Shown here: one piece after another, positions 1-26,633 of the stretch
Layout of the letters: each line of letters opens with the position of its first letter
How positions within the stretch are numbered: the stretch's first letter is position 1
Origin: Brucella rhizosphaerae
GTDB taxonomy: Bacteria > Pseudomonadota > Alphaproteobacteria > Rhizobiales > Rhizobiaceae
Length of the DNA: 64,000 nt
NCBI RefSeq assembly: GCF_002252475.1
Contig: NZ_NNRK01000025.1
Span: forward strand, 62,001 to 126,000
Direction: 5' to 3'
Translations under genes and position numbers: made by a program
The notes under the pieces: model-generated
Seen by the model: only the letters and a program-made list of their open reading frames with translations
Told to the model about the DNA's origin: nothing
Database searches by the model: none

Positions 1-626
1 TGATGATTAACCAGCAGGCAGGTGCGGGTTGCTGATGCGGTCATTGCGCGCTTGGTGCGAACGACGCTTTCATCCATGTGATAAACGAGCCGTCCATTGA
101 CCGCCGGTGCCGAAATGAACGCAATATCTGCGCTGAGCTTGGATAGAGCTTCTTCGGTCAACAGACCGAAGAAAGCGTTAAATTTGGCAGAAAAAACACC
201 GCCAAGTGCGATCAGATTAATTCCGCCTTCGCCCTTGAGTGTATCGATGATGACGGCATTGTTGGTGATAACCGTCAACGGGCGCTTCTCGATCAGCATG
301 CTGCCAAGCACCGCAGCCGTTGATCCGTCATTGATCATGACGGTCATGCCGGGCTCAATCAGTTCCAGTGCTGCGCGGCCCATCTCAATCTTGGCTTCAT
401 TGTCCTGCTGCACACGAAAACGAAAATCGCTCTCAAACTGAGAACCTGCATCCATGGTTGCACCGCCGCGCACTTTGCGCAGCACGCCAGACTCTTCAAG
501 CGAATCCAGATCACGGTGAATGGTCATTTTGGAGACCGCAAAGCGTTCTGCAAGATCATCGAGATCGACTGCATGATTTTCAATCAGCAGATTTATGATC
601 GCTTGTCTTCTGTCATCGCGCTTCAC
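1..626 (-). CDS. eryR: DeoR-family regulator EryR, C-terminus cut by window edge
   Basis: About 208 residues are visible; the 3' end lies beyond position 1. I start it at the GTG at 624-626 because no in-frame ATG lies upstream and the protein begins right at the helix-turn-helix (DLAERFAVSKMTIHRDLDSL, residues ~19-38). The effector domain follows, with the DGST motif typical of DeoR proteins that sense phosphorylated sugars. In Brucella a DeoR-type gene (eryR) lies just downstream of eryD and upstream of eryH (tpiA2) and eryI (rpiB), and the order here matches. EryH and EryI would lie outside the window. It probably controls the eryRHI unit. Tandem CACAAAA boxes sit in front of it. The family call is firm; the symbol rests on position. 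Confidence 0.85.
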   Translation of the reverse strand, partial: MKRDDRRQAIINLLIENHAVDLDDLAERFAVSKMTIHRDLDSLEESGVLRKVRGGATMDAGSQFESDFRFRVQQDNEAKIEMGRAALELIEPGMTVMINDGSTAAVLGSMLIEKRPLTVITNNAVIIDTLKGEGGINLIALGGVFSAKFNAFFGLLTEEALSKLSADIAFISAPAVNGRLVYHMDESVVRTKRAMTASATRTCLLVNH

Positions 627-670
627 GGCGTTTCCGATCTCAGAGCATGTTTGTTTATCGCACAAACTTA

Positions 671-724
671 AATCACAAAATCACAAAACAATCCATATAA
701 AATGTTATTTTGTGATATTTTGTT
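671..724 (-). promoter_or_regulatory. AT-rich repeat boxes in front of eryR (candidate operator)
   Basis: TCACAAAA occurs at 673-680 and again at 681-688, and its inverse TTTTGTGA lies at 708-715, with a further TTTTGTT at 718-724. The surrounding DNA is very AT-rich, unlike the coding flanks. The cluster sits between the eryD stop and the eryR start, where a promoter for eryR-eryH-eryI would lie. DeoR-type regulators often bind such short repeated boxes, so self-control by EryR is plausible. The repeats are seen; the function is inferred. Confidence 0.45.
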
Positions 725-748
725 GATTGGAGCGTCGCGCACTGTTTC

Positions 749-1684
749 TTATGACAAAAGAACCTTAGCAGTGCGCTCATCCGTGATCAGGCCATATAAA
801 CGGCCGCTTTTCAGGACGGCGCGAATAGCTTCTGCCTTCGAAAGACCACCGGCAAGACCGATGATGCGGCTCATATCAGCATTTTCTACGGAAGCGGCGA
901 TGGTGCGGGCAGTCAGTCCTGTTTCAAGCCTGGTTCCATTTGCATCGAAGAAGTGACCGAGCATTTCGCCTACGCCACCCAAATGGGCGATCTCTTCCAC
1001 TTCGGAGAGTTCTATTACCCCGGAGGTGACAAGCTGGGCATGGGCATCGACTGTGCCGATACCGACGATTTTCAGCTCTGCACGGCACCCCATTTCGAAA
1101 ACGCTGGTCACACCCTTTTGCGCCAGCAGCACTTCGCGGTCTTCTGCTGTGTTGGCAAAGAATGGCACCGGCATCACATAGGCCGGCCTGCCTGTCTTCT
1201 CGGCAATTCGATGCATCACGTCATGCGGGTTGGCAGCAAAGTTTCGGGTAAGACCACCAAGCAGCGATACGAACTGCAAATCTTTAGCACCAACGCGCGG
1301 CATATGGTTGACCGCTGCCGAAAGCGTGCGACCGTGTCCAAGCCCGATCACTTCGTGATCACCGTGCTCGATTTCACGACGCAGAAATTCCGCACCGGCA
1401 TTGCCGAGTGATAGCAGCGGTAAGGCTTCTTCACCGAGATCGGGTGTCACTTCGCAGTATTCGAGATTATATTTTTCAGCGAGCCGATTTTCGAGATCAA
1501 TACATTCAGTGATGTCGCCGTCGATCGTCACTTTGACCGCACCATCGGCAACCGCCTTGGCGATGAGGCGGTGTGCCTTCACGGACGGGAGTCCAAGCCG
1601 CTTGGCAACCGCCGACTGTGTCATGCCCGCGACAAAGTGGAGCCAGGCTGCACGAAGGGCCAGGGAATCGTCTGAATCTGCCAT
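749..1684 (-). CDS. eryD: Erythritol operon regulator EryD (SorC/DeoR type)
   Basis: 311 residues, close to Brucella EryD. An N-terminal helix-turn-helix (AVAKRLGLPSVKAHRLIAKA, residues ~25-44) is followed by a SorC-type sugar-binding domain with GLGHGRTLSAAV, LLGGLTRN and a C-terminal AGGLSKAEAIRAVLKSG. In Brucella EryD represses the ery operon and erythritol relieves the repression. Here it is the last gene of eryABCD, 41 bp after eryC. The gene is intact; the Brucella abortus S19 vaccine strain carries a deletion across eryC-eryD that is not present here. Confidence 0.93.
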   Translation of the reverse strand: MADSDDSLALRAAWLHFVAGMTQSAVAKRLGLPSVKAHRLIAKAVADGAVKVTIDGDITECIDLENRLAEKYNLEYCEVTPDLGEEALPLLSLGNAGAEFLRREIEHGDHEVIGLGHGRTLSAAVNHMPRVGAKDLQFVSLLGGLTRNFAANPHDVMHRIAEKTGRPAYVMPVPFFANTAEDREVLLAQKGVTSVFEMGCRAELKIVGIGTVDAHAQLVTSGVIELSEVEEIAHLGGVGEMLGHFFDANGTRLETGLTARTIAASVENADMSRIIGLAGGLSKAEAIRAVLKSGRLYGLITDERTAKVLLS

Positions 1685-1725: not shown

Positions 1726-2658
1726 TTATATCTTCAGGTCCGCGGCGCCCGTGTCAATGTGTGGTGCCCAGAAGGCCACACTTTCCGCGATCTGTGGAAT
1801 AACTTCACGATCATTGGGCTCGCGTTCCTTAAAGGAGAGCTCAAGACAGATTTCATTGTCTTGCGCTCCGCCGTCCGCAAAAGCCTTGAGTAGCGGCTCC
1901 GGCTGAATGCGACCCTTTGCGTTGAACGCGGCGGTGAAAGGACGATGCCCACCCTTATCCATGAGGCTCTGCTTGATGTGAATGATCGGCGATATTGTAG
2001 GCACTGCACGCGCCCATGCATAGGGATCGAAATCATCCGGGTTGGACGAGGTCACATCGCCATGGTCGATATCGGCCATCATCCACATCGGGATGGTCAT
2101 ATTGGCTGCAGTCAGTCGATCCTGAAGCTTGATGCTCTCAGCAATCGTGTCACCAAATTCGCGGCCGATGCTCATCGGCTCCCAGAAAACATATTCAAGA
2201 CCAGCGCCGCTCGCATGTTCAGCAACGTCAGCCCAGCAGTCGATAGCGATCTTGATAAGCTCTTCACGGCGTTCAGGATTGTCAAAATCCTTGTAAGTAA
2301 AAATGGCGAACTGCGTGCCGACCGACTTGCCACCGAGATCACCAATGATATCGGCAAATGTCTTGAACCAGTCGATATAATAGCGACGCACTTCCGCATC
2401 CGGGTGGCCGAAATGGTTCAGACGTCCATATGGGCCGGTCATGCCAGAAGTCACGCGAACGCCAGTGCGCTGTAACGCCTTGTCCATATCGCGGGTGAGG
2501 CGGCGGATGGTCGAAGCTTGCCAGCTCGGATTGATGAACTCATGGGTGAGCTGCAGATCGCGCAGGCGCAGATCGCGCGCAACGGTTTCGATCAGGTCAT
2601 CCGGCTCTGCAAAGCGGTTCACAAGCGGATTGGTATTCAGCGATAATGTCAGAGCCAT
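1726..2658 (-). CDS. eryC: Tetrulose-4-phosphate racemase EryC
   Basis: 310 residues of the xylose-isomerase-like TIM-barrel superfamily. EryC was long annotated as a dehydrogenase. Work in Brucella showed that it racemises L-3-tetrulose 4-phosphate (L-erythrulose 1-phosphate) to the D form, which EryH and EryI then convert to D-erythrose 4-phosphate for the pentose phosphate pathway. The start at 2658 follows a GAGG ribosome site at good spacing and lies only 7 bp after the eryB stop, so translation is probably linked. No Rossmann motif is visible, which agrees with an isomerase rather than a dehydrogenase. Confidence 0.92.
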   Translation of the reverse strand: MALTLSLNTNPLVNRFAEPDDLIETVARDLRLRDLQLTHEFINPSWQASTIRRLTRDMDKALQRTGVRVTSGMTGPYGRLNHFGHPDAEVRRYYIDWFKTFADIIGDLGGKSVGTQFAIFTYKDFDNPERREELIKIAIDCWADVAEHASGAGLEYVFWEPMSIGREFGDTIAESIKLQDRLTAANMTIPMWMMADIDHGDVTSSNPDDFDPYAWARAVPTISPIIHIKQSLMDKGGHRPFTAAFNAKGRIQPEPLLKAFADGGAQDNEICLELSFKEREPNDREVIPQIAESVAFWAPHIDTGAADLKI

Positions 2659-4237: not shown

Positions 4238-5791
4238 TTATCTGTCGGCTGCAAGCTTGTCCCAGATGGGCGCCAAGGCTAGTCGGGCGTCCTTATAGGC
4301 GGTGAAAAGCTCTTCATAGCGCTGTGCCTGCGCAGCATCGGGGGCTTCGCCCGCTCCCAGCAGAGGTGCGACCCATTCGGCGATGCAATCATCCATGGTT
4401 GGATAAGCGCCGATAGCGACAGCGGCCATCATTGCAGCACCTGCAGCGCCTGCTTCTTCACGCGATGAAACACGAACGGGCGCATTGACGGCTGCGGAAA
4501 GCGTGCTGCGAAGCGCACGTGAACGAGCGGCACCACCTGTCAGACGCAGTTCCGCTGGCATGCCGCCCATGGCCGCGTAACAATCGCGTGTTGCCATGCC
4601 GAGACCTTCAACGACCGAACGCACCAGTTCGGGGAAACGGTCGCGGCTCGAAAGGCCGATAAAGCCTGCACGTGCAAAAGCGTTGACGAAAGGTCCGCGT
4701 TCTCCGGCTTCGGAAATATAAGGATGATAAAGCAACGCGCCGGGGCGGCTCATATTGAACCACTCATCGAGGCGAGGAATCAGATCGTTTAAGCTGACTT
4801 TTTTGTCTGCTGTCGACATGAGATCGGCTGCAATTTGCAAAATCCAGTCGATATTGATCGTTGCGCCCATATTGGTCTGAACCTGGGTGACAATACCCGG
4901 GATTGGCAGCGCAATCACATAACCCGTGCCTTCGGCGTTCAATTGAATGTCGGCAACAGGCTTTGCGCGCATATGCACGCCCGTCGATCCGATAGTCGAG
5001 CAGCCGGCATCTGCGGTGCCGCAATAAACGCCTGCGCCAAGTGCCGTCATGACCATATCGACATAGCCGAGACTCACCGGCGTACCGGCCAGAAGACCAG
5101 TCGCAGCTGCCGCTTCGGGGGATAACGGATGCTGCGTCAGAGTGCCGTCCACGATTTCGGGCAGCAGACCACGGCGCTTTTTCAGGCCGAGCGCTTCAAT
5201 AACCACATCGTCATACTGACGATTGCGGTAATTGCCGAATGTGAAACTGGCCTCCGAAGGATCTGTGGCACGGACGCCGGTGAGGTTGAGGTAAAGCCAG
5301 TCCTTACAGTGAAGAGCGACTTCGGCATTATCGAGCAGTTCCGGTACGAAACTGTCCATATGTGCCATTTGAGTGCCTTGCTGGCAGGTATTAAGGCCGG
5401 TTCCGGTCGCTTCAAAGCGCGCGCGGTTCATCGGGCCTGCTGCAAGTTTTGTAACGGTATTGGCAGCACGAGCGTCGAGCCAGATCCAGGCGTCACCGAC
5501 CGGCTTATTATCGCGTCCCACAAGCCATGTGCCATCACCCTGACCAGTGACGGAAATGGCGGCGGTACGCGCGCTTAAGTTTGGAATTTTGTCTGCAAGA
5601 CCGCGCAGAGCTTTGGCGCAATCTTCCCATGTCTGGGACAAGGACTGTGTCGCGGCACCATGTTCGCCGGTTGCATAAGTATTGCGGACAGCCGCCGATT
5701 CCAGTTGACGACCGCTAAGATCGAACGCCACTGCCTTGACGACGGATGTGCCCGCGTCGATACCGATGATTATATCACCCTTACCACGCAT
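4238..5791 (-). CDS. eryA: Erythritol kinase EryA (FGGY family)
   Basis: 517 residues from the ATG at 5789-5791. The frame is open to another ATG at 5819-5821 (527 residues). It phosphorylates erythritol as the first step of the pathway. The N-terminal ATPase motif IIIGIDAGTSVVKAVAFD is at residues 7-24, and the C-terminal FGGY half carries LTGGAARSRALRSTLSAAV and an EEAGAAGAAMMAAVAIGAY helix. The start is uncertain: the only strong ribosome site (GGAGGA, 5838-5843) is spaced for an ATG at 5829-5831 in another frame, which encodes 16 residues and ends inside the eryA start region. I chose 5791 because its length is nearer my memory of the Brucella protein (519). Confidence 0.92.
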   Translation of the reverse strand: MRGKGDIIIGIDAGTSVVKAVAFDLSGRQLESAAVRNTYATGEHGAATQSLSQTWEDCAKALRGLADKIPNLSARTAAISVTGQGDGTWLVGRDNKPVGDAWIWLDARAANTVTKLAAGPMNRARFEATGTGLNTCQQGTQMAHMDSFVPELLDNAEVALHCKDWLYLNLTGVRATDPSEASFTFGNYRNRQYDDVVIEALGLKKRRGLLPEIVDGTLTQHPLSPEAAAATGLLAGTPVSLGYVDMVMTALGAGVYCGTADAGCSTIGSTGVHMRAKPVADIQLNAEGTGYVIALPIPGIVTQVQTNMGATINIDWILQIAADLMSTADKKVSLNDLIPRLDEWFNMSRPGALLYHPYISEAGERGPFVNAFARAGFIGLSSRDRFPELVRSVVEGLGMATRDCYAAMGGMPAELRLTGGAARSRALRSTLSAAVNAPVRVSSREEAGAAGAAMMAAVAIGAYPTMDDCIAEWVAPLLGAGEAPDAAQAQRYEELFTAYKDARLALAPIWDKLAADR

Positions 5792-5831
5792 GACTGAAAT
5801 ACGCTTTCCCAAAGTGCTCATTCAGGGACAT
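5781..5831 (-). CDS. Possible 16-residue leader peptide of eryA
   Basis: An ATG at 5829-5831 lies 6 nt after a perfect GGAGGA ribosome site and opens a 16-codon frame (MSLNEHFGKAYFSHAW) that stops with TAA at 5781-5783. That stop lies 5 nt inside the eryA frame counted from the ATG at 5791, an arrangement that would allow termination and restart on eryA. It overlaps the longer eryA start at 5821. It could also mean that the eryA start is misread. No family is recognised. Confidence 0.35.
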   Translation of the reverse strand: MSLNEHFGKAYFSHAW

Positions 5832-6375: not shown

Positions 6376-6536
6376 ATGATTAAATTTCTCACTCCCATGG
6401 CCGCCTGTGCGAAAATCCGTTTAGCTTTTGCTGGCCGGGTTCCTGATCGCGGGTGCAGTCTACAAGCGGTGTAAGTTCAGCCGCGTAATCCGTTATTTAC
6501 AACGACAATCCGGCAGAATTTGCTGAAGGCGTTTGA
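6376..6536 (+). pseudogene. Decayed small membrane-protein gene upstream of the DUF2291 gene
   Basis: An ATG at 6376 behind GGAGG starts MIKFLTPMAACAKIRLAF and hits a stop at 6472. The next frame (from 6425) reads LLLAGFLIAGAVYKR, a likely membrane helix. The third frame (from 6489) reads YNDNPAEFAEGV and stops at 6534-6536, 2 nt before the next gene's ATG. Protein-like text in three successive frames suggests a small gene broken by frameshifts, or sequencing errors. It could be chance; I do not recognise a family. Confidence 0.3.
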
Positions 6537-6538
6537 TT

Positions 6539-7192
6539 ATGAGTACACAAGCTAATCAAGTTTCACAGAAGCCAGCCAAGCTGAACCGCACAGTCCTTTG
6601 GAGTGTGGTCGCGGCGGTTGTGGTTGTCGGTGCAATTGGATTTGATACCAAGGTCGTGACGATCGGTTCTGATGCCGATGTGCGCCAGCAGGTCTTTTCC
6701 CCTGAAGCCTATGGCGCTGCGGAATTTCCGAAAGTCAAGGCAAGCGTTGAAGAGCGTGCGGCCGATGCTGTTGAAGTTGGCACAGCACTTGCTGCTGACA
6801 AGGATGCAGCCGGCAAGAAATATGGTGTTGGCAGTGTGAACCCGGTCATTTCGATCAAGTTCACGGGCACCGTTGAAGAGCGCAAGTCCAATTATAATGT
6901 CATCAAGGTTGATGGTTTCCCTGAAGGCATGGCAATTCGCGTCCAGACTGGTCCTGCTGTAAATGGCACCGATCTGCGCGATGCGACGGGCACCATCGAG
7001 TTCGGTCAGTTCAAGAATCAGATCGAATTCCAGAACGCCGGTTCTGCACTCAACAATGAGATGAAAAAGCAGGTTCTCGAAGGTGTTGACGTCAACAATC
7101 TCGTTGGCAAAACCGTTTCGGTGACAGGTGTTTTCAAGCTGGTCAATCCGAAGAACTGGCTGGTTACGCCGGTGGGGTTTGAAGTAAAATGA
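6539..7192 (+). CDS. DUF2291 protein of the erythritol transporter operon
   Basis: 217 residues. The ATG at 6539 is preferred over an upstream TTG at 6533. One hydrophobic segment (TVLWSVVAAVVVVGAIGF, residues ~18-35) should anchor it in the inner membrane with the rest in the periplasm; there is no lipobox cysteine. The family has no assigned function but is repeatedly found beside ribose-type ABC transporters. The core includes VNPVISIKFTGTVEE and VQTGPAVNGTDLRDATGTI, matched in the second copy at 21397-22041. The stop overlaps the start of the ATPase gene by 4 nt. A role in sugar uptake is inferred from this linkage only. Confidence 0.8.
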   Translation: MSTQANQVSQKPAKLNRTVLWSVVAAVVVVGAIGFDTKVVTIGSDADVRQQVFSPEAYGAAEFPKVKASVEERAADAVEVGTALAADKDAAGKKYGVGSVNPVISIKFTGTVEERKSNYNVIKVDGFPEGMAIRVQTGPAVNGTDLRDATGTIEFGQFKNQIEFQNAGSALNNEMKKQVLEGVDVNNLVGKTVSVTGVFKLVNPKNWLVTPVGFEVK

Positions 7193-11050: not shown

Positions 11051-11111
11051 CGTACCGATGCTATGAATCGGGACCGGTCAATAATTGAGCGGGCTGGGGA
11101 CGAGTGGAAGC

Positions 11112-11960: not shown

Positions 11961-12030
11961 GCCTGAAGGCTTGAGAGTTTAACGCGCATCTTAGTCCTGA
12001 AACCGTTTCACACTTTTCGGGCTGCGCTCA
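11961..12030 (-). repeat. Partial inverted copy of the intergenic repeat
   Basis: Read on the minus strand, 12022-11985 gives CCCGAAAAGTGTGAAACGGTTT followed by GACTAAGATGCG, matching the left part of the repeat family seen at 27548 and 50607 (GCAAAAGTGTGAAGCGGTTTT...GGATAATGCG). The right half is missing or diverged. It fills the short gap between the DeoR gene and the kinase. Confidence 0.5.
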
Positions 12031-12057
12031 TCGCATACATATCAGGAAATACGATCC

Positions 12058-13572: not shown

Positions 13573-13617
13573 AATATGCCGCGCTCGTTTGCGCGATGAC
13601 GATGTAAAGACAGTGAA

Positions 13618-15863: not shown

Positions 15864-15890
15864 AAGCCGGGCAGCTCGCCCGGCTTTTTT
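15864..15890. terminator. Bidirectional terminator between the cupin gene and apnL
   Basis: AAGCCGGGC (15864-15872) and GCCCGGCTT (15878-15886) form a 9 bp stem over a 5 nt loop, followed by T residues to 15890. The convergent apnL stop codon lies in the T-run, so the hairpin should serve both directions. Confidence 0.85.
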
Positions 15891-17718
15891 AAACCGTCAT
15901 TGAGAGCACGTCATAGGGCGGAATTTTGATTGTTCTGCCACTTTCAACGACCACGTCCTGCTCATACGATGTGATATTGACCAGCCAGACGGTCTTATCT
16001 TCTACCGCAAATGCCAGAACGTCTGATGGACGCGATGACTGACACAGTCTGAAACTTTTACCGGCAAGCTGCGCGAGCACTTTGACTGCATTGAACAGAG
16101 GGCGTTTTTCACCCGCAGCAGCCGGTTCGTTTTCACCTGCGATCAGGCCAAACGGGCCGGTGAGCGCTGAAAGTGTGAGACTGTCCAGTCCTGCATCAAG
16201 CACAGATATTGCATATGCAAATGCAAAGCTTTCCGCAAATTTTCCATTATGGCGCGGATCGCGATCGGCCATGGCGATACGTTTGCCATTCGGGTTTTCC
16301 ATCGTCCGGGTGCCATATGGGTTCTGACGCATGGGGATGGTAGACGGCCCGATGCGATAGGGTTTGTCGCCATAAATAGCCCTCACCGAACGCGTGATGA
16401 AAGGCAGTGCTTCCAGTGTCTGCATGACACTCAGATCATCAGCCGCATGGACAATCGGATTGGTGCAATGGGTGACAAAATCGATGAGGTCGCGCGGTAC
16501 ACGCTTGCGATTCAGCTCAGTGAAATAGCTCAGCATTCCACCGCCGAGACGCACATTCGGGAAGGCTGCTCTCGCTGCCGCATAAACATCTTCGAGCGGC
16601 GGGCAGGGTGGCCATTCACTTCCGGGAGGAGTCGATTGCCGGTCTATGGCCGGTGAAACCATGATTGCATCTGGCATGAAACCAGCGGCTTTCATGTCTG
16701 CTGCAATGGCGCTCGTTTCATCGATGAGCGCTTTCATGCAAGGCAATGCTATTTCGAGAGAAACGCGCCCTTTGTAGTGGGCGACCAACGCTGCAAAATC
16801 GGCAAATGCCTGCCCGTTATGGCCCGCCAGAGGATCGTAATGAAATAACAAATCCTGCGGGGCAAGTTCCTTTAGTAGCTCTATCGCAGTTAAACTGGCC
16901 TTGGCTTCCTCCGGCGTGATGATGATGCCGATACTTGGCATCCTGCCACCCACGTCACCGAGCGTGATGTTCACCGGCTCTGCATTCCGAGCTGTTGTTA
17001 ACGCTGTTTTGCGCGTGTCGCGAATACTGAGCACAATGCGCTGATGCTGGAGCTTGGATGCTTCAATCTGATAAGGCCATGGCAAAGCCAGTGGACGCAC
17101 ATAGGTCTTGTAAGATGCATCAGACCAGTTGCGCTGATCTTCCATCTCAAACGTGTCGCCCTCCATGCGGCACTCGGCTGAAACGCCGGGGATCGCCTCG
17201 TGGGTGATAGCGCGCATGTCCCTGAAGGGCTGCCAAGGCTCGATCAGGTCGGGCAGATGGGTTTGATTGAGCGTGCCATCGACGTGCTCGACAGACACAG
17301 GTGAGCCTGCCACGCCGACGATTGGATGCAGAATACAGAAGCCGCAACGGTTGGTCTCAAAGCCGGTCCCGGTATTGGCCATGGCGTCGAACGTGAGCGT
17401 TCCGCTGGTATCTGCCTGAATGCGGACATCAATGTTTAGCTGTGTTGCATCGGGGCCTTCACACTGAGCCTGATAGGTAACGGTAAATCCGGTACTGTTT
17501 TCTTCGACGTTGAGATCGTGAATTTTCGGACTATAGGTGCCCCAGTCGCGATCCCGCACCAGATAGGAAATGGCACGCAGAACCTCGACGCCGTCATAGG
17601 TGATCGTGCGAAGATTGCCATCGCTGAGATCAACGACGAGCAGGCCCGCTTTCAGATACAGTGGTTTGGCTTCCGTTTCGCGCGTTCCAAAGAGCAGAAA
17701 AGGATCGACGCTGCTCAT
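15889..17718 (-). CDS. apnL: D-apionate lactonase ApnL
   Basis: 609 residues, matching in size and character the ApnL proteins found in D-apiose clusters, which open D-apionolactone to D-apionate. Recognisable text includes FETNRCGFCILHPIVGVAGS and VEHVDGTLNQTHLPDLIEPW; no classical lactonase motif is evident. It is the last gene of the apiose operon and overlaps apsD by 4 nt, placing hydrolysis right after the dehydrogenase step. The call depends on the neighbourhood as well as the protein. Confidence 0.85.
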   Translation of the reverse strand: MSSVDPFLLFGTRETEAKPLYLKAGLLVVDLSDGNLRTITYDGVEVLRAISYLVRDRDWGTYSPKIHDLNVEENSTGFTVTYQAQCEGPDATQLNIDVRIQADTSGTLTFDAMANTGTGFETNRCGFCILHPIVGVAGSPVSVEHVDGTLNQTHLPDLIEPWQPFRDMRAITHEAIPGVSAECRMEGDTFEMEDQRNWSDASYKTYVRPLALPWPYQIEASKLQHQRIVLSIRDTRKTALTTARNAEPVNITLGDVGGRMPSIGIIITPEEAKASLTAIELLKELAPQDLLFHYDPLAGHNGQAFADFAALVAHYKGRVSLEIALPCMKALIDETSAIAADMKAAGFMPDAIMVSPAIDRQSTPPGSEWPPCPPLEDVYAAARAAFPNVRLGGGMLSYFTELNRKRVPRDLIDFVTHCTNPIVHAADDLSVMQTLEALPFITRSVRAIYGDKPYRIGPSTIPMRQNPYGTRTMENPNGKRIAMADRDPRHNGKFAESFAFAYAISVLDAGLDSLTLSALTGPFGLIAGENEPAAAGEKRPLFNAVKVLAQLAGKSFRLCQSSRPSDVLAFAVEDKTVWLVNITSYEQDVVVESGRTIKIPPYDVLSMTV

Positions 17719-18749
17719 TTTAGCAAAGCCGCGATGTCGATGCGATTACCGCTCGCAGCACTGTCATAGGCCGCTTCGACAAGCGCGAAAGTCTTGAGAT
17801 TATCAGCGCCCGATGTGGAGGTTTCTTCACCCGATGCGAGCTTATCCACCCAGTGCTGCTGAATGGCAAAAACGCTTTCCTGAATATTGTGCCATGGACG
17901 CGAGGCCCACGAGAGCAGTTTTGGTGCAACGTCGGAAACAGTGGTGCCAGAAGGTGTGATCACCTCAAGACGATAGCCCTGATAAAGCCGGATCGAGCCT
18001 TCCGTGCCATCAAGTTCAATGAGCGTTTCCGGGAAAGGATCGGTCCTGAGTTTGGTGGCATAGCTCACGTCGACAATCGAGGTTGCACCATTTTCATGGT
18101 CCATGAGAATGGTTGCCACATCCTCGCCCTTGATCTTCGGGTTAACGCGCTTTGTGCGCGCGACAAGGCTCGTGACGTCGCCCAGAATGAAGCGCGCAAT
18201 ATCAAGCGTGTGAATGCCGAGATCTTCGATAATAAAGCGCTCACCTTCCGCAAGATAAGGCTGACCGGAGAAGACATCAAAGCCCGAGCGGAAAGAAAAA
18301 CGCCCCCAGAATGGTGTGCCGATGACGCCACTGTCGAGCGCCTTACGTACGGCCTGAACAGGCGTCTGCCAGCGGAAATTTTCATGCACCATGAGCGGAA
18401 TGCCTGCCTCGTGACAGACTTTCACCATTGCCTTTGCATCATCAAGCGTTTTGGCAAATGGCTTCTGGCAGATTGCTGGCACCTTGTGGGCGGCGGCAAG
18501 TTCCACCAAAGCACGGTGGCTTGAAACCGTGGTGGCAATATCGACAAAATCGATGCCGCCATCCGCAAACAGCGCCTGCGCATCCGTGTAGCGGCGTTCG
18601 ATGCCAAACTGGTCACCGACAATCTTCAGCCGCTCAGGATCGCGGTCGCAGATTGCCACGATTTTGGCATCCGAAACGTCATTCCATGCATGCATCTGGT
18701 TGATTGCGAAGAAGCCGCAGCCGATCAGAGCGCCATTCAATTCTGCCAT
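17715..18749 (-). CDS. apsD: D-apiose dehydrogenase ApsD (Gfo/Idh/MocA family)
   Basis: 344 residues from the ATG at 18747-18749; the frame runs 38 codons further upstream inside the permease gene, but the Rossmann motif GALIGCGFFAINQMHAW begins at residue 6 of this start. The lysine of the usual EKP motif is kept in ICQKPFAKT, and IEDLGIHTLDIARF carries the catalytic-region histidine. It would oxidise D-apiose to apionolactone with NAD. It lies 2 bp after the permease stop and overlaps apnL. Confidence 0.87.
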   Translation of the reverse strand: MAELNGALIGCGFFAINQMHAWNDVSDAKIVAICDRDPERLKIVGDQFGIERRYTDAQALFADGGIDFVDIATTVSSHRALVELAAAHKVPAICQKPFAKTLDDAKAMVKVCHEAGIPLMVHENFRWQTPVQAVRKALDSGVIGTPFWGRFSFRSGFDVFSGQPYLAEGERFIIEDLGIHTLDIARFILGDVTSLVARTKRVNPKIKGEDVATILMDHENGATSIVDVSYATKLRTDPFPETLIELDGTEGSIRLYQGYRLEVITPSGTTVSDVAPKLLSWASRPWHNIQESVFAIQQHWVDKLASGEETSTSGADNLKTFALVEAAYDSAASGNRIDIAALLK

Positions 18750-18751
18750 TT

Positions 18752-19819
18752 TTAACCCGCTTTTGCCATTTGCATGAGTGTAACGCGCTGCTGGAGGCGG
18801 CGCTGCGCCTGATCGACCACCACGGCAATGATGATGACAAGGCCTTTGATGACCATCTGCCAAAAGGACGAAACGCCCATCATGACCAGACCGTCGGAGA
18901 GAATACCGATAACGAATGCACCAATGATCGTACCGCCAATAGTGCCGCGTCCGCCAGACATCGAGGTGCCGCCGAGAACCGCTGCCGCAATGGCGTTAAG
19001 CTCAAAGGAATTTCCCGTTGCCGGATGTGACGACATCAGCTCGGATGAGATGATAATGCCGACAATTGCCGCACAGAAGCCCGAAAACATGTAAACGAAC
19101 ATCTTTACGCGATCGACACGGATGCCTGACATGCGGGCTGCACGTTCATTGCCGCCGACTGCGAAAATCTGACGGCCAAGCGGCGTGTAACGCGCGACAT
19201 AAGCTGCAATGAGCGCCACCGCGATCAGAATCCAAATTGAGACGGGCAGGCCCAGAATGCTGCCGGAGCCGAGGAAGGCAAAGCCGGTTGTACCCAGGTC
19301 TTCGCGGCCAACGAGGTTCGGGAAAGTCTGGCCGTCTGAGGACAACAGCGCCAGACCACGCGCCACATACAAGGTGCCGAGCGTCGCGATGAAGGGCGCG
19401 ACATTTAATTTGGTGATCAATAGCCCGTTTATGAAGCCGACCGCGACACCTACTGCCAGTGTGATGAGCGATATCTCAAAGATGTTGAAATAGATCGTAT
19501 AGCCGACGCCAAGGTCAACGCCATAGATCAGCAGGCCACCCGCCACCATCCCGCAAAGCCCGACGATGGAGCCGACCGAGAGATCGATGCCGCCCGTGAT
19601 AATGACGAAGGTCATGCCCATCGCGAGAAACGCGTTGAGGGCGACGTGCTTCGACATCAGGATGAGGTTGGCGGCAGAAAGGAAATTTGGCGCTGCGAAC
19701 GAGAAGAAGATGAACACCGCGAAAAGCGCGATGAAGGTTCTCAGTTTCATCAGCGTCAGCAGGGCCGAGCCGCTGTTAAAGGTTGAGTCAGTGGCCGCCG
19801 TCGTTGTGTTGGCTGTCAT
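18752..19819 (-). CDS. Apiose-type ABC transporter, permease
   Basis: 355 residues, ribose-type permease. The conserved loop ITGGIDLSVGSIVGLCGMV and AVGGNERAARMSGIRVDRV are present with about ten hydrophobic segments. The start overlaps the ATPase stop by 4 nt and the stop is 2 bp from apsD. The likely substrate is D-apiose or a related branched sugar, inferred from the operon. Confidence 0.87.
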   Translation of the reverse strand: MTANTTTAATDSTFNSGSALLTLMKLRTFIALFAVFIFFSFAAPNFLSAANLILMSKHVALNAFLAMGMTFVIITGGIDLSVGSIVGLCGMVAGGLLIYGVDLGVGYTIYFNIFEISLITLAVGVAVGFINGLLITKLNVAPFIATLGTLYVARGLALLSSDGQTFPNLVGREDLGTTGFAFLGSGSILGLPVSIWILIAVALIAAYVARYTPLGRQIFAVGGNERAARMSGIRVDRVKMFVYMFSGFCAAIVGIIISSELMSSHPATGNSFELNAIAAAVLGGTSMSGGRGTIGGTIIGAFVIGILSDGLVMMGVSSFWQMVIKGLVIIIAVVVDQAQRRLQQRVTLMQMAKAG

Positions 19820-21393
19820 GACGCGAGTTCCCTTGTTTGTTTGTTGTGGTCGTTGTCATGCGTATGCCCGTGGCCCTTGGCCGAAGCGGCAACAATGTCG
19901 GCTTCCGTCGCTTTATCGCGGTCGAATATGGCAATCAGCTTCCCATTGCTGAGCACCGCGATGCGATCGGAGAGCGCCATGACTTCTTCCAGATCAGAGG
20001 TTGAAAAGAGAATGGAAAGACCTTCGGCGGCAAGCCTGCGCATGGTGCGGAAAACGTCAGCCTTCGCACCCACATCGATGCCGCGCGATGGTTCGTCCAT
20101 CAGAAGAACTTTTGGATTGGTCATCAGCGCCTTGCCGATGACGACTTTCTGCTGGTTGCCGCCCGACATCGACGTGACTTCGAATTCCGGGTTTGGTGCC
20201 TTGATAGCAAGGTCCTGGATCGCCTGTTGAATGGCTTGTTTTTCGCGCTTTGGCGTGATGTGGAAGAAGCGCGCCAGACGGTCGAGACTTGCAAGCGTCA
20301 GATTACTGGCAATGGATAATATCTGGACCAGACCTTCGCGCTGGCGGTCTTCCGGTATGAGCGCAAGGCCGCGTCGGATGCGACGGGTTGTGTCGCGCTC
20401 CTTCACTTCCTGGCCATCGATATAGATATTACCGGTCGAATGCCCGTGTTGCCCCATCACGCATTCAAAGAACTCGGAGCGTCCTGCACCCATGAGGCCA
20501 TAAATACCCAGAACTTCACCGGCGCGCACTGAGAGCGACACATCATCAACTGCGAGCCCACCGGTTGGGCGGGGCAGGGTGATGTTCTCGGCACGAAACC
20601 GCTCAGCTCCGATTTTGTGGGTAACAGGCTTGGCAAAATCCTTGGCATCGGAACCGATCATCGAACGCACGATCCATTGCGTATCGATATTCCTGATCTC
20701 TTCCTGCCCGGTGATTTTCCCATCACGCAGAACCGTGATGTAATCACCAATCCGCATCAGTTCTTCGAGACGATGCGAAATGTAGACGATTGCCACGCCC
20801 TGACTCTTCAGCTCGGCAATCACCTTGAACAGAATATCGACTTCGGCGGCTGAAAGTGCGGATGTCGGCTCGTCCATAATGACGATGCGTGCATCAATCG
20901 AGATTGCCTTTGCGATTTCGACAAGCTGCTGCTGACCAATCGGCAAATCGGCGACAAGCGTATTTGCACTGATGCCTGCATCGAGCCGGTCGAGATATTC
21001 GTTGGCCTTTACAACCTGCGCCTTGTGATTGATGCCGCGCAGACCGCGTGTGATTTCGCGTGTGGCAAAGATATTTTCTGCCACCGACATATTTGAAAAC
21101 AGGTTCAATTCCTGAAAAATCATCGCAATGCCGCGCTTTTGCGCATCGGCGGGACTGTCGAATGATACTTCTTCAGCATCGAGAATAATCTTCCCCATGG
21201 TCGGGCGTTCAACGCCAGCGATGATTTTCATCAGCGTGGATTTACCCGCACCATTTTCGCCGACAAGCACATTGACCGAGCCACGGCGCAGTTCAAGATT
21301 GGCACGCTTGACAGCGACAATGCCTGAATAGACCTTGGAAACATCCTCAAGCTTGAGGACAATATCGTCCCTCTGGTTCAGTTCCGTCTCCAT
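19816..21393 (-). CDS. Apiose-type ABC transporter, double ATPase with His-rich tail
   Basis: 525 residues, ribose-type double ATPase. Walker A GENGAGKS is at residues 45-52, with LPIGQQQLVEIAKAI and IVIMDEPTSAL in the first half; SMSGGNQQKVVIGK and VLLMDEPSRGIDVG lie in the second. The last ~20 residues (from about residue 504) are unusual: KGHGHTHDNDHNKQTRELAS holds four histidines and several acidic residues, like metal-binding tails. EryE lacks this. It overlaps the permease start and follows the DUF2291 gene by 3 bp. Confidence 0.88.
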   Translation of the reverse strand: METELNQRDDIVLKLEDVSKVYSGIVAVKRANLELRRGSVNVLVGENGAGKSTLMKIIAGVERPTMGKIILDAEEVSFDSPADAQKRGIAMIFQELNLFSNMSVAENIFATREITRGLRGINHKAQVVKANEYLDRLDAGISANTLVADLPIGQQQLVEIAKAISIDARIVIMDEPTSALSAAEVDILFKVIAELKSQGVAIVYISHRLEELMRIGDYITVLRDGKITGQEEIRNIDTQWIVRSMIGSDAKDFAKPVTHKIGAERFRAENITLPRPTGGLAVDDVSLSVRAGEVLGIYGLMGAGRSEFFECVMGQHGHSTGNIYIDGQEVKERDTTRRIRRGLALIPEDRQREGLVQILSIASNLTLASLDRLARFFHITPKREKQAIQQAIQDLAIKAPNPEFEVTSMSGGNQQKVVIGKALMTNPKVLLMDEPSRGIDVGAKADVFRTMRRLAAEGLSILFSTSDLEEVMALSDRIAVLSNGKLIAIFDRDKATEADIVAASAKGHGHTHDNDHNKQTRELAS

Positions 21394-21396
21394 GGC

Positions 21397-22041
21397 TTAT
21401 TTCTCCACAGAGATGGAAACGGGAGTGAGGAGTGGAAGCTGGCCCTTCGACGGCAATGGGAAAGCGCCTTCGGCTTTCACCTTCATGCCGACAAGATCTT
21501 CGCGTGGCAGCTTGGACAGTACGTCGTCGTTGACGCGGGTGTTGAAAGCCTTGCCGAACTGTGCCCAGTCGATCTGGTTACGGAACTCGTTGAAATTCAC
21601 GAAGGATAGGCTGTCACGGATCGCGCTGCCGCGAACCGTAGGCCCGATCTGCACGCGTGCATCGGCCTTGCCATCGCCATTGCTGTCGACATCGACATAG
21701 GCGGCGCGTGACTTTGTTTCAGCTGCGACCACTGTGCCTTCAAGCTTGGCTGCGAAGGTCCAGGGGGCATTGCCCTGCTTTTCGCGATGGCCGTATTTTG
21801 CTCCGGCTGCATCTACATCAGCATTGGTGGCCTGCATCACTTCGTCGAGCGTTGCAGTCTTCTCGGCAAAAAATGGCTTCACTTTTGAATCCCAGATATC
21901 GGCGACCGAGCGATCGGGATTGAAATTATCGCCGCGTGCTTCTGCGGCTTCTTCTGCTGTCGGCGTCTTGATGATTTTGCAGCCCGAAAGCGCGACACCG
22001 CAGGCCAGCAGGATAATGGAAGCTGACTTCAGCACTGACAT
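21397..22041 (-). CDS. DUF2291 lipoprotein of the apiose transporter operon
   Basis: 214 residues from the ATG at 22039-22041, behind a GAGGAT ribosome site; the frame is open 23 codons further up. The N-terminus is a lipoprotein signal with lipobox LSGC (cysteine at residue 20), so it should be a periplasmic lipoprotein. The body matches the DUF2291 protein at 6539-7192 (LEGTVVAAE, VQIGPTVRGSAIRDSLSFV, LVGMKVKAEGAF). The two paralogs use different membrane anchors. It sits between the binding protein and ATPase genes. Confidence 0.82.
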   Translation of the reverse strand: MSVLKSASIILLACGVALSGCKIIKTPTAEEAAEARGDNFNPDRSVADIWDSKVKPFFAEKTATLDEVMQATNADVDAAGAKYGHREKQGNAPWTFAAKLEGTVVAAETKSRAAYVDVDSNGDGKADARVQIGPTVRGSAIRDSLSFVNFNEFRNQIDWAQFGKAFNTRVNDDVLSKLPREDLVGMKVKAEGAFPLPSKGQLPLLTPVSISVEK

Positions 22042-22106
22042 GAATTTATCCTCGATATAGGAAGTAGTGCCGGGAACGCGGGCGCTCCCGGCTAAGCAGT
22101 GCCTGA

Positions 22107-23138
<1,032 letters not shown>

Positions 23139-23966
23139 TCACGTAATGCGACGGATGCTTTCTGCGATTTCTTCCGGTTCGAAAACGTTCTTCCAGTCGT
23201 CGCGCATCAGCGCAGGAATGCCGAATTCGATTGCCTTGTTGCAGGCATCGGAGAATACGCCCTGGACTTCGCCAAAGATGACGGCGCCGAGAACATTCAT
23301 GTGGCCGAGCAGGAAGTCGCGAGCAGCTTCTTCAGGAACGCCGCGACGAACGCTTTCGTCCATAGCCTGCTTCATGACGACCAAAAGGGATGCGCAAACA
23401 GTTTCCGACAGGCCCGGCTCCAGGATTGCGAGCTGCTCGACGGTTACGCGGTGCGAGCGCATGACAGGTGCCCAGATGACCTTGGCAATTTCTTCGCCAA
23501 GCGCATAGGTTTCTTCCGGACCCTGCATCAGAGCCGAAACGATGTGCTGCTTTGCAAACAGACCGCCGAAGTGATCCTTCTTTGCCTGCATGTCTGTTTC
23601 GTCGTTGAAGATTGGTGGATGGCAAGGATGTGTCACGAAGTAAGTGAGATCTGCGCGTTCTGGCAGATGGCCGGCAAATGGTGCAGCTGCATCGAGCGCT
23701 ATAACCATCGTGCCTGGCTTCAGCTTGTCGACGATGCCTGCAGCAACCTTGCCGATAATAGTATCCGGCACAGCCAGAATAACGACTTCAGCGCCTTCGA
23801 GACCTGCACCCGCATCGATGGTGTCGATGCCGAGGTCGTTCTTCAGGCGTGCCTTGCCTGCGTCGCTGACTTCAATGTGACGTACGTCAAAGCGCGAACC
23901 TTTGAGGTTCTTGGCCAGACGGTAGCCCATCTTGCCGCCCGCTCCGAACAAAGCGATAGCTGTCAT
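23139..23966 (-). CDS. apnO: D-apionate oxidoisomerase ApnO
   Basis: 275 residues. An N-terminal Rossmann motif (IALFGAGGKMGYRLAKNL, residues 4-21) and VVILAVPDTIIGKVA lead into an all-helical C-terminal half, as in 6-phosphogluconate dehydrogenase relatives. ApnO oxidises D-apionate with migration of a hydroxymethyl group to give 3-oxo-isoapionate, an unusual reaction shown for this family. GGAAGGAAC precedes the start at good spacing. A palindromic operator candidate lies in the 64 bp between oiaK and this gene. Confidence 0.87.
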   Translation of the reverse strand: MTAIALFGAGGKMGYRLAKNLKGSRFDVRHIEVSDAGKARLKNDLGIDTIDAGAGLEGAEVVILAVPDTIIGKVAAGIVDKLKPGTMVIALDAAAPFAGHLPERADLTYFVTHPCHPPIFNDETDMQAKKDHFGGLFAKQHIVSALMQGPEETYALGEEIAKVIWAPVMRSHRVTVEQLAILEPGLSETVCASLLVVMKQAMDESVRRGVPEEAARDFLLGHMNVLGAVIFGEVQGVFSDACNKAIEFGIPALMRDDWKNVFEPEEIAESIRRIT

Positions 23967-23998
23967 TTATAGTTCCTTCCCAGACTTTTGGTAACTTA

Positions 23999-24027
23999 AC
24001 TGGTATAACCAGTCAATGAGTATTCCA
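23999..24027 (-). promoter_or_regulatory. Palindromic operator candidate upstream of apnO
   Basis: ACTGGT-ATA-ACCAGT is a perfect 15 bp inverted repeat at 23999-24013, in the style of GntR/FadR operators. It is followed by ATGAGTATTCCA at 24016-24027. The same two blocks (AACTGGTATAA and ATGAGTATTCCA) occur fused at 26711-26732, in front of oiaX. Sharing between two positions of one operon points to the divergent GntR regulator at 26843. Confidence 0.6.
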
Positions 24028-24030
24028 GAT

Positions 24031-25377
24031 TCAAATCGCGAGTCCGTCACGAATCTGGCTGAAGTAACCGTCAGAACCGACCTGACCGCCCTTGAGGGCA
24101 ACTTGCAGGCCGTTGGTGGCGGCGTGATCGCCGTGTGCCGTGCAAAGCGGCGACCCGGGTGTTTGTGGAAGCGGCAAATGCGTGGTCAGTGCATCCACAT
24201 GCAATTCACGCAATGCGTGGCTGGAAGTGTCGCCGCCTGCAATGACTGCGCGGGTAAGCTGTTCGCGCTCGACCAGGCTGCGGAGGATGAAACCGAGGCT
24301 GCGCGCCAGTTTGTGACGGCTACCTGCGATCTTATCGATTTCTGCACCGCGATCAGCCGATGGGCCAAGCGCTGTATTGAGGATCACGCTGTTGCCCTGC
24401 TTAAGCGCCTTCTGGCCTTCGGCAATGGCGGCTTCGATTGCCTGACTACTGTTTTCGCCTAGAAGATCGAGCGGGTTGAGGTCTATGCCGGTAAAGCCTG
24501 ATGCCGTTGCATGGCGAATCTGGCGTTCGGTCGTTGGCGAAACGCTGCCTGAAACGACCGCAATACGGTCGACCCTGCCCGGAAGCGTAAACTCTTTTTT
24601 CTCAACGATCAGTCCGGCTTTGGCCCAAGCGGTCAGCAGCGCATATTCAACGCCCGATGAGCCCGCAACGAACCAGCCTTCACGAGCACGCAAACGCCAG
24701 AGCTGTTCGCCTGCCTGCAACTGGCTTTCATGGCTATCAACGTCGAGCAGCAACATGCCGTCAGCATTTTGGGCAATGGCGCTGACGCGATCATCGGCAT
24801 CACCTGATGCAAGTGTTGCAAGATCGGCGAGGACAGTTCTAAGCGTTGTCTGTTGAGCCAGATGCATGCGCAGATCGGCCTCATGCATCGGCGTGACCGG
24901 ATGGCGGCTCATCACCGGATGGCGGTCGATGCGATAGATTTCGCCCTGATAGGCAGCAAACAGATTGCCGAAAGAGGTGTAACGCTTGAGCTGCGGCGCA
25001 CCGACAACCAGTGGCACATAGACCTGATTGAAGATTGCTTTGCCGATTTCCACGGCCTTGCCGATATTGCCGACTTGCGGCGCTGAATCGAATGTCGAGC
25101 AGACCTTATAATGGGTGATCGCCGCATTGAGGCCTTTCAGCCAGTTGAATGCGGGTGTCAGATGTTCCTGCATCCATTCCGGCGTTTCGCTGCGGCTGGT
25201 GCCTGCAAGCCCGATGGCTTTGCAATGCGAAAAACGAGCAAGCAGCTTCTCGTCTGGCACATTCATGAACAGAACTGTGTCGACGCCATTGGAAGCGAGA
25301 GCTTCCATAACATCGGTCGAGCCGGTGAGATCATCACCGTAATAAGACAGCAGCAATTCGTTAGAAGCCTGTGACAT
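24031..25377 (-). CDS. oiaK: 3-oxo-isoapionate kinase OiaK (DUF1537 family)
   Basis: 448 residues of the four-carbon-acid-sugar kinase family. The substrate domain motif YYGDDLTGSTDVMEAL is at residues 12-27. The C-terminal nucleotide domain has VIAGGDTSSHALRELHVDAL. OiaK phosphorylates 3-oxo-isoapionate at C4 with ATP. Its start overlaps the oiaX stop by 1 nt (TAATG), and the RuBisCO-like partner that uses its product is directly upstream in the operon. Confidence 0.87.
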   Translation of the reverse strand: MSQASNELLLSYYGDDLTGSTDVMEALASNGVDTVLFMNVPDEKLLARFSHCKAIGLAGTSRSETPEWMQEHLTPAFNWLKGLNAAITHYKVCSTFDSAPQVGNIGKAVEIGKAIFNQVYVPLVVGAPQLKRYTSFGNLFAAYQGEIYRIDRHPVMSRHPVTPMHEADLRMHLAQQTTLRTVLADLATLASGDADDRVSAIAQNADGMLLLDVDSHESQLQAGEQLWRLRAREGWFVAGSSGVEYALLTAWAKAGLIVEKKEFTLPGRVDRIAVVSGSVSPTTERQIRHATASGFTGIDLNPLDLLGENSSQAIEAAIAEGQKALKQGNSVILNTALGPSADRGAEIDKIAGSRHKLARSLGFILRSLVEREQLTRAVIAGGDTSSHALRELHVDALTTHLPLPQTPGSPLCTAHGDHAATNGLQVALKGGQVGSDGYFSQIRDGLAI

Positions 25378-26633
25378 TACTCGCCACCTTTCCCGAATTT
25401 TGCGAGCGAGGCTGCAAGTTCGGGGTGATCTGCTGCATATGTTTCAAGCGGGATGCCAGTGACTGCTGCTTCCCACGCTTGCTGCACGGCGCGGACACCG
25501 GCAGCCGGGCCGCCCGGATGACTGACAATGCCGCCGCCGCACAGGTAAAGCAGATCCGTGGTGCGACCCGTGCGTTCATAGGTTTCCGGTGCCTGACCGC
25601 CCCACTGGCCGGAACCGGCAACGGGAAGCGGGCAATCGGCAGGCGTGAACAGTGGCGTACTGACAGCCTTGAATGAATTGACGAAGCTTTCGTCCGGCTC
25701 CCAATATTTCACGCGAATGCCATTGATCTGGAACTGATCGACGCCAAGCAGACGCCAGAACTGCTGATAGACGCCGAAATCCATGCCCGCGCCCGGATTG
25801 CGGGTCAGAATGTCCCAGCCATTGCGGTGGGCATGTAGCACGAGGCCCGAGCGTTTGCGCAGGAAGCTCATGCCGCCAAAGCCAACCGAGTTGATATTGA
25901 CCACGGCGCAATTGCCGCCAGCTTTCAACACCATGTCATGATTGCGCATCATGACGTCGGGGTCGGCATGGGAGATGCCAAAGGCATACATGACCTTTTT
26001 GCCGGTCTTCTGTTCGTGATCGAGGATGCGCGGCATGATCGCTTCAATGCGCTCTTTGAGCGGCGAATAGGCCGGGCTCATCAGCTTTTCATCGTCCTTG
26101 ATGAAATCCACACCGGATTCGATCAGTTCGCCGACGAGTTCCGCCGTCTCATGTGGGCGCAAACCAAGGGCTGGCTTGACGATTGTGCCGATGATCGGGC
26201 GCTTTTCAACGCCTGTGAGGCGACGGCTTCCGGCGATGCCGAACTGAGGTCCGGGATGTGCGGTGCGGAAAGCATCCGGCAATTTCATGTCAACAACGCG
26301 GATGCCGGTCATGCCCTTGATCGAATAAACGCCGCCAACGGCAATCGTCATCAGTGCTGCGAGATCAGTACCAACAGCATCAAGCGGAAAGGCGATGTCG
26401 ACATCAGCGCGCTTGATGGGGCCGTGACCGGGTTCAAGCTCTGGCCAGGCAGGCACGCTTGCATCTTCAAGCGGACGAATTTCCAGTACGCGCGCTGCGA
26501 CGCGCGCCTTCAGCTCTTCCGTTTCACCGGGAACAGCGACAAAAGTGCCGGTCGACTGATCGCTCGCGATCTTGGCCGCCATCTGTTCAATGCTGTCTGT
26601 TGTCTCAATACGATAGGTCAAACAGATGTTCAT
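25377..26633 (-). CDS. oiaX: RuBisCO-like protein OiaX, acts on 3-oxo-isoapionate 4-phosphate
   Basis: 418 residues from the ATG at 26631-26633; a GTG at 26648 in frame adds five residues and cannot be excluded. RuBisCO-type active-site residues are kept: K153 (IVKPALG), the carbamylation-type lysine K179 in FIKDDE, histidines in LHAHRNG (267, 269) and the phosphate-binding CGGG at 365-368. Two known OiaX reactions exist: decarboxylation to L-erythrulose 1-phosphate, or transcarboxylation/hydrolysis to 3-phosphoglycerate and glycolate. I cannot decide between them by eye. It is the first gene of the apiose operon. Confidence 0.88.
   Translation of the reverse strand: MNICLTYRIETTDSIEQMAAKIASDQSTGTFVAVPGETEELKARVAARVLEIRPLEDASVPAWPELEPGHGPIKRADVDIAFPLDAVGTDLAALMTIAVGGVYSIKGMTGIRVVDMKLPDAFRTAHPGPQFGIAGSRRLTGVEKRPIIGTIVKPALGLRPHETAELVGELIESGVDFIKDDEKLMSPAYSPLKERIEAIMPRILDHEQKTGKKVMYAFGISHADPDVMMRNHDMVLKAGGNCAVVNINSVGFGGMSFLRKRSGLVLHAHRNGWDILTRNPGAGMDFGVYQQFWRLLGVDQFQINGIRVKYWEPDESFVNSFKAVSTPLFTPADCPLPVAGSGQWGGQAPETYERTGRTTDLLYLCGGGIVSHPGGPAAGVRAVQQAWEAAVTGIPLETYAADHPELAASLAKFGKGGE

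What the first reader, a model, noticed from the sequence alone, without database searches (positions are those of the whole stretch)
1..26633. Erythritol and apiose pathways may merge at L-erythrulose 1-phosphate
Within 27 kb lie a full ery operon and a full apiose/apionate operon. EryB makes L-3-tetrulose 4-phosphate, the same molecule as L-erythrulose 1-phosphate. One class of OiaX enzymes makes exactly this compound. No separate tetrulose-phosphate isomerases are present in the apiose operon, so EryC, plus EryH and EryI presumed outside the window, could serve both routes. This would explain the linkage and predicts that eryC mutants fail on apiose.
Basis: partly seen in the sequence, partly recalled or inferred. 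Interest (0 to 1): 0.75.

Follow-up and report, generated by a model that had tools for sequence, protein, structure and literature searches.

The report
Apiose pathway borrows erythritol isomerases
This bacterium most likely finishes breaking down the plant sugar apiose with two enzymes that belong to its neighbouring erythritol genes, so the two routes meet, but one step later than first proposed.

Summary
In detail: a Rhizobium-type ery locus and a D-apiose operon lie end to end, and the apiose operon has no tetrulose-phosphate isomerases. EryH and EryI lie just left of the window, single copies in the genome.

The merger is supported; its junction is wrong. EryB's product, L-3-tetrulose 4-phosphate, is D-erythrulose 1-phosphate, the mirror image of OiaX's expected product. 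L-Erythrulose 1-phosphate is what EryC makes and EryH uses. So EryH and EryI are shared; EryC is not.

Comparison agrees. Of 297 family genomes, 59 have OiaX: 59 of 59 also have EryH and EryI, 49 of 59 EryC. Of 80 OiaX loci, 17 carry EryH+EryI inside the apiose operon without EryC, among them all 8 whose genomes lack EryC. Two OiaX genomes without EryC keep a separate eryR-eryH-eryI unit.

The prediction reverses: eryC mutants should grow on apiose; eryH or eryI mutants should not. The chemistry is known; the sharing seems new in the searchable library, but the key apiose paper was not readable. Enzyme activities are inferred.

The parts
1..665 (-). EryR (DeoR family), cut by the window edge; EryH and EryI follow it just outside the window (G000:C17:61027-61806 and 60458-60910, minus strand)
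   Evidence: EryI over NCBIfam DerI cut-off (255.4 > 240); best solved relative of EryH is PDB 11ef 'L-erythrulose-1-phosphate isomerase'
672..722 (.). Inverted repeat in the eryD-eryR gap, candidate EryR operator (conservation not shown)
   Evidence: arms 674-691/705-722, 83% complementary; ATCACAAAAT copies; short pieces of it found in the same gap of only 3 of 5 other loci
749..1684 (-). EryD regulator (sugar-binding domain PF04198)
   Evidence: synteny
1726..2658 (-). EryC, D-/L-erythrulose 1-phosphate 3-epimerase (not needed for apiose)
   Evidence: PF01261 43.1 bits; 85% to the R. brockwellii homologue; function from PMC10733421
2666..4207 (-). EryB dehydrogenase (GlpD-like)
4238..5821 (-). 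EryA kinase (FGGY)
6533..7192 (+). DUF2291 lipoprotein of the ery transporter operon
   Evidence: PF10054
7189..10998 (+). EryE-EryF-EryG ABC transporter (ATPase, permease, binding protein)
   Evidence: synteny
11085..15345 (+). DeoR regulator, second FGGY kinase and second GlpD-like dehydrogenase; substrate unknown; also beside ery in R. brockwellii
15889..17718 (-). ApnL D-apionate lactonase
   Evidence: NF049900 1042.8 bits, cut-off 750
17715..18863 (-). ApsD, apiose dehydrogenase by superfamily and position (GFO/IDH/MocA)
   Evidence: no curated model reached
18752..23132 (-). Apiose ABC transporter: permease, ATPase, DUF2291, binding protein
   Evidence: binding protein 519 bits to PDB 5ibq
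23139..23966 (-). ApnO, D-apionate oxidoisomerase by superfamily and position
   Evidence: PF16896 240.8 bits; no NCBIfam model at 1e-20
24031..25377 (-). OiaK, 3-oxo-isoapionate kinase
   Evidence: NF042436 475.2 bits, below cut-off 700; PF07005/PF17042
25377..26648 (-). OiaX, RuBisCO-like 3-oxo-isoapionate 4-phosphate decarboxylase
   Evidence: NF042437 783.6 bits, cut-off 700
26714..26732 (.). Palindromic site TGGTATAATGAGTATTCCA, probably bound by the apiose GntR regulator
   Evidence: exact in 70 of 80 OiaX loci; only perfect match to the half-site pattern in the genome
26843..27547 (+). GntR/FCD regulator of the apiose operon
   Evidence: divergent from oiaX in the 80 loci

Best explanation
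The apiose operon takes D-apiose to L-erythrulose 1-phosphate (ApsD, ApnL, ApnO, OiaK, OiaX) and stops there. EryH (L-erythrulose 1-phosphate isomerase) and EryI (D-erythrulose 4-phosphate isomerase), encoded in the neighbouring ery locus, carry it on to D-erythrose 4-phosphate and the pentose phosphate pathway. Erythritol enters the same node through EryA, EryB and then EryC, which turns D-erythrulose 1-phosphate into the L form. The junction is EryC's product, not EryB's; EryC is needed for erythritol only. Shown here: gene content, copy number in the genome, stereochemical identity of the names, co-occurrence pattern. Inferred: enzyme activities, flux, and induction of eryR-eryH-eryI during growth on apiose.
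For: (1) Only one EryH and one EryI in the genome, beside the ery genes; none in the apiose operon. (2) Stereochemistry; PMC10733421 passages; PMC5992420 passages. (3) In 297 family genomes OiaX occurs with EryH in 59 of 59 (31 of 238 without OiaX), with EryI in 59 of 59 (30 of 238 after dropping two hits under 50% identity), with EryC in 49 of 59 (19 of 238). (4) In the 80 nearest OiaX genomes, EryH is present in full in 79 and as a fragment in one; EryC is missing in 8, and all 8 have EryH+EryI between oiaK and apnO; 17 of 80 have this embedded pair, and no EryC was seen inside an apiose operon within the stretches held. The samples of (3) and (4) share at least six genomes. (5) In L092, eryA-B-C-H-I ends about 1.8 kb from oiaK-oiaX. 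(6) Two OiaX genomes without EryC keep a separate eryR-eryH-eryI unit (L099, L100). (7) EryI passes NCBIfam's DerI cut-off; EryH's best solved match is a named L-erythrulose-1-phosphate isomerase.
Against: No enzyme of this operon was assayed. OiaK scores under its curated cut-off. NCBIfam models name EryH only a triosephosphate isomerase. The apiose operator is absent from the eryR-H-I region, so joint induction is not shown. OiaX and EryC also co-occur strongly (49 of 59 against 19 of 238), as they would if the whole ery locus mattered. Among the 59 EryH matches, five are only 48-56% identical (G122, G159, G168, G328, G360) and one is partial (G255), so 'EryH in 59 of 59' includes looser relatives. 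In G328 and G298 (OiaX, no EryC) EryH lies far from the apiose genes. Genomes are related, so the small p-values overstate independence.
Confidence: 0.85

Rival explanations
1. One reading: EryB and OiaX make the same molecule, so EryC, EryH and EryI are all shared and eryC mutants fail on apiose.
For: OiaX and EryC co-occur in 49 of 59 OiaX genomes; EryC is reversible (PMC10733421).
Against: The two products are mirror images; EryC is missing in 8 of 80 and 10 of 59 OiaX genomes, while EryH is present in those; the 17 embedded isomerase pairs do not include EryC.
Confidence: 0.05
2. OiaX here is of the transcarboxylase/hydrolase type and gives 3-phosphoglycerate and glycolate, so no tetrulose phosphate is made and the linkage is incidental.
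For: Both activities are known among apiose RuBisCO-like proteins (PMC6302742 passages; products recalled); no separate NCBIfam model for the second type showed among the hits.
Against: 783.6 bits to the decarboxylase model; 86-87% identical to Rhizobium rhizogenes proteins; decarboxylation is assigned to A. radiobacter K84; EryH and EryI in 59 of 59 OiaX genomes.
Confidence: 0.05
3. Linkage without sharing: both loci sit on a stretch that gathers plant-sugar genes, and L-erythrulose 1-phosphate is removed another way, such as aldolase cleavage to dihydroxyacetone phosphate and formaldehyde.
For: A class II aldolase gene lies beside eryI; some aldolases act on erythrulose 1-phosphate (PMC10733421); another sugar cluster lies next door.
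Against: It does not explain why EryH and EryI accompany OiaX in 59 of 59 genomes and sit inside the apiose operon in 17 of 80 loci.
Confidence: 0.05

Closest known systems
D-apiose pathway with RuBisCO-like decarboxylase OiaX (Carter et al. 2018; recalled, not held)
   Same: ApsD, ApnL, ApnO, OiaK, OiaX and a ribose-type ABC transporter
   Different: The last two steps (LerI/DerI) are not in the operon here; they come from the ery locus. In 17 of 80 related loci they are in the operon
Erythritol pathway EryA-B-C-H-I of Rhizobiaceae and Brucella (Geddes 2013 PMC3599248, abstract and first part of the results seen; Barbier 2014 recalled, not held)
   Same: Gene order of the Rhizobium leguminosarum type
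   Different: Followed by an apiose operon that lacks its own isomerases, with an extra kinase/dehydrogenase pair between
LerI/DerI module for tetritols and the synthetic EuMP cycle (PMC10733421, passages)
   Same: Same two isomerisations from L-erythrulose 1-phosphate to erythrose 4-phosphate
   Different: There the feeder is an aldolase or a tetritol dehydrogenase and kinase; here a RuBisCO-like decarboxylase

Membership tests
Apiose/apionate pathway, OiaX decarboxylase type | OiaX decarboxylase over curated model cut-off | tested here: met
   783.6 > 700 bits
Apiose/apionate pathway, OiaX decarboxylase type | ApnL lactonase over cut-off | tested here: met
   1042.8 > 750 bits
Apiose/apionate pathway, OiaX decarboxylase type | OiaK kinase in the operon | tested here: inconclusive
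   OiaK model is the best of three hits but at 475.2 bits, under its cut-off of 700; a homologue follows oiaX in the 80 loci
Apiose/apionate pathway, OiaX decarboxylase type | ApsD and ApnO | tested here: inconclusive
   fitting superfamilies and position, no specific model
Apiose/apionate pathway, OiaX decarboxylase type | Product L-erythrulose 1-phosphate | not testable with these tools
   inferred from EryH/EryI co-occurrence
Apiose/apionate pathway, OiaX decarboxylase type | LerI and DerI available in the genome | tested here: met
   single copies in the ery locus, none in the apiose operon
Rhizobium/Brucella-type ery locus | eryABCD, eryEFG, eryR-H-I in this order | tested here: met
Transcarboxylase/hydrolase type apiose pathway | No need for tetrulose-phosphate isomerases (my expectation) | tested here: not met
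   EryH and EryI in 59 of 59 OiaX genomes

The most novel reading that the evidence does not exclude
eryR-eryH-eryI is not an erythritol unit but a portable, self-regulated hub for tetrulose phosphates, with EryR sensing a shared phosphorylated intermediate. It is fed by erythritol through EryC, by apiose through OiaX, and by a third substrate through the FGGY2-GPDH2 pair (11085-15345), perhaps L-threitol, whose oxidation would give L-erythrulose 1-phosphate directly. Hints: eryR-H-I stands apart from eryABC in two OiaX genomes without EryC, in one beside a GPDH2-like gene (L099), and has its own inverted repeat upstream here, though that repeat is not shown to be conserved.
Probability: 0.3. 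Interest if true: 0.6.

Novelty: new variant of a known kind. Interest (0 to 1): 0.45.

Why it matters
It suggests two plant-sugar routes sharing one isomerase pair, arranged differently by relatives: own copies inside the apiose operon, an ery locus next door, or a separate pair. It predicts which ery mutants lose apiose growth.

Tried and rejected
Rejected: EryC as a shared step. Rejected: joint control of eryR-H-I by the apiose GntR operator; the half-site pattern has one perfect match in the genome, at oiaX, nine further sites at one mismatch against eight for the reversed control, and none at up to 3 mismatches in the 3.4 kb of L004 around eryH/eryI. Rejected: a frame break in the ery-side DUF2291 gene; the 219-aa ORF has the length of its R. 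brockwellii homologue. Considered: the next cluster (29063-34245) as a second apionate route; its xylose-isomerase-like protein hits no NCBIfam model at 1e-20, so nothing supports it. The tree of EryH (24 rows) puts the 17 embedded copies on one side of a branch with modest support (80/79). Led nowhere: Carter 2018 and Barbier 2014 are not held; searches for papers holding both 'apiose' and 'erythritol catabol', or both 'apionate' and 'erythrulose', returned 0 and 0; the listings showed none on the link, and one search listed only 15 of 6,868. Absence from print is shown only for this library and these terms.
Full report
What was claimed. The finding says that an erythritol operon and an apiose operon lie together, that the apiose operon has no tetrulose-phosphate isomerases, that EryB and OiaX make the same molecule, and that EryC, EryH and EryI therefore serve both routes.

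Check of the observation. The window is G000:C17:62001-126000 of a 4.9 Mb genome. The nearest named OiaX proteins come from the Brucella/Ochrobactrum group (up to 96%). The ery genes run from eryD to eryA on the minus strand and from DUF2291 to eryG on the plus strand, in the order of an annotated R. brockwellii locus and of the R. leguminosarum type described by Geddes et al. (PMC3599248, abstract and first part of the results seen). EryH and EryI lie just left of the window. The genome has two TIM proteins, one of them EryH, and one RpiB protein, EryI. The apiose operon has the expected genes: ApnL and OiaX pass their curated cut-offs, OiaK does not (475.2 against 700 bits), and ApsD and ApnO rest on superfamily and position. 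The binding protein gives 519 bits to PDB 5ibq and 518 to 4ry0; that 5ibq holds apiose is recalled, not read. No isomerase family shows in the apiose operon.

Stereochemistry. Naming from opposite ends swaps D and L. By CIP assignment from the Fischer projections, L-3-tetrulose 4-phosphate is (R), as is D-erythrulose 1-phosphate; L-erythrulose 1-phosphate is (S), as is D-3-tetrulose 4-phosphate. PMC10733421 (passages) calls EryC D-erythrulose 1-phosphate 3-epimerase, giving the L form for LerI; omitting EryC abolished growth of their strains, which they read as a sign that their aldolases make the D form. PMC5992420 (passages) states that L-erythrulose is phosphorylated to D-3-tetrulose 4-phosphate. 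So OiaX's product, L-erythrulose 1-phosphate (Carter 2018, recalled), is EryC's product and EryH's substrate.

Comparative test 1: the 80 nearest OiaX loci (of 414 relatives found). With up to 10 kb on each side (four loci, L012, L013, L035 and L077, are shorter), 17 carry EryH+EryI between oiaK and apnO, 3 carry EryI alone there (L041, L045, L046), 5 have eryB-C-D-R-H-I directly upstream of the gntR-oiaX pair (L011, L020, L029, L047, L054; EryR), and no EryC shows inside an apiose operon. In the genomes behind them, EryH is present in full in 79 of 80; the last, a metagenome-assembled genome, shows only a 27-residue piece. EryC is found in 72 of 80 at E 1e-60. All 8 genomes without EryC carry the embedded pair, against 9 of the 72 with EryC (p about 8e-7, relatedness not corrected).

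Comparative test 2: 297 genomes sampled from the family, the window's own included (tallied). OiaX in 59. EryH in 59 of 59 OiaX genomes and 31 of 238 others; five of the 59 are only 48-56% identical and one is partial (G255). EryI in 59 of 59 and 30 of 238 (two hits under 50% identity dropped). EryC in 49 of 59 (one, G300, cut by a contig end) and 19 of 238. The 10 OiaX genomes without EryC fall in 8 genera; in 6 of the 10 EryH lies within 10 kb of OiaX. Of the other four, two (G336, G356) have an eryR-eryH-eryI unit with no EryA, EryB or EryC in the stretch read (EryR 51-52% identical), G298 has eryH-eryI alone, and G328 a more distant EryH (55%) without EryI beside it. EryA and EryB were not sought genome-wide. 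OiaX lies within 30 kb of EryC in 12 of the 49 genomes that have both. In G351 eryE-F-G-A-B-C-H-I ends about 1.8 kb from oiaK-oiaX, facing it (L092). At least six genomes are in both samples (same match coordinates). The layouts differ, which speaks for more than one joining.

Identity of the isomerases. EryI passes NCBIfam's D-erythrulose-4-phosphate isomerase cut-off (255.4 > 240), whereas EryH matches only triosephosphate isomerase models there (445 bits, cut-off 293). EryH's best solved relative is named L-erythrulose-1-phosphate isomerase (PDB 11ef, 519.7 bits).

Control of expression. A 19-bp palindrome, TGGAATACTCATTATACCA, lies in the oiaX-gntR gap, exact in 70 of 80 loci; its half-site pattern has a single perfect match in the genome and none at up to 3 mismatches near eryH/eryI. 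The eryD-eryR gap has a different inverted repeat (672-722); short pieces of it turned up in the same gap of 3 of 5 other loci and not in 2. So the shared genes must be induced by some other means during growth on apiose; a shared phosphorylated intermediate as the EryR signal is my inference. This is the weakest link.

OiaX type. PMC6302742 (passages) assigns decarboxylation to the A. radiobacter K84 protein and transcarboxylation/hydrolysis to the Xanthobacter one. The window's protein passes the decarboxylase model and is 86-87% identical to Rhizobium rhizogenes proteins, and its constant partnership with EryH/EryI fits the decarboxylase. A Rhodobacteraceae strain with the same five genes grows on D-apiose (PMC11747546, passages).

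Verdict. The merger is very likely, the junction is L-erythrulose 1-phosphate, but the shared enzymes are EryH and EryI only. The chemistry is known; the outsourcing of the last two apiose steps to the ery locus is the new element, as far as the searchable library shows.

Noticed in passing
window 11085-15345: DeoR regulator, second FGGY kinase and second GlpD-like dehydrogenase, also beside ery in R. brockwellii (L091); the kinase and dehydrogenase lie beside eryH-eryI in G163 (L094), and a GPDH2-like gene (49%) beside a separate eryR-H-I in L099. Possibly a third feeder of tetrulose phosphates.
   Followed up: partly
window 27665-34245: Uncharacterised sugar cluster next to the apiose operon: LacI regulator, GFO/IDH/MocA dehydrogenase, xylose-isomerase-like protein, DUF4432, SDR, 7-bladed lactonase. 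A distant ApsD-like (26-27%) gene lies on the same side in L005, L008, L010, L019.
   Followed up: partly
G000:C17 just left of eryI (L004); L091 17527-18591: A class II fructose-bisphosphate aldolase gene lies beside eryI here (named by its match to the annotated R. brockwellii fba, 88%) and beside GPDH2 in R. brockwellii; it may take part in tetrulose or erythrose phosphate handling.
   Followed up: no
L041, L045, L046: Three apiose operons carry the EryI homologue but not the EryH homologue between oiaK and apnO; EryH and EryC are found in their genomes.
   Followed up: no
window 35550-38694: CoA-transferase family III and enoyl-CoA hydratase genes, an acyl-CoA type operon apparently unrelated to the finding.
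   Followed up: no
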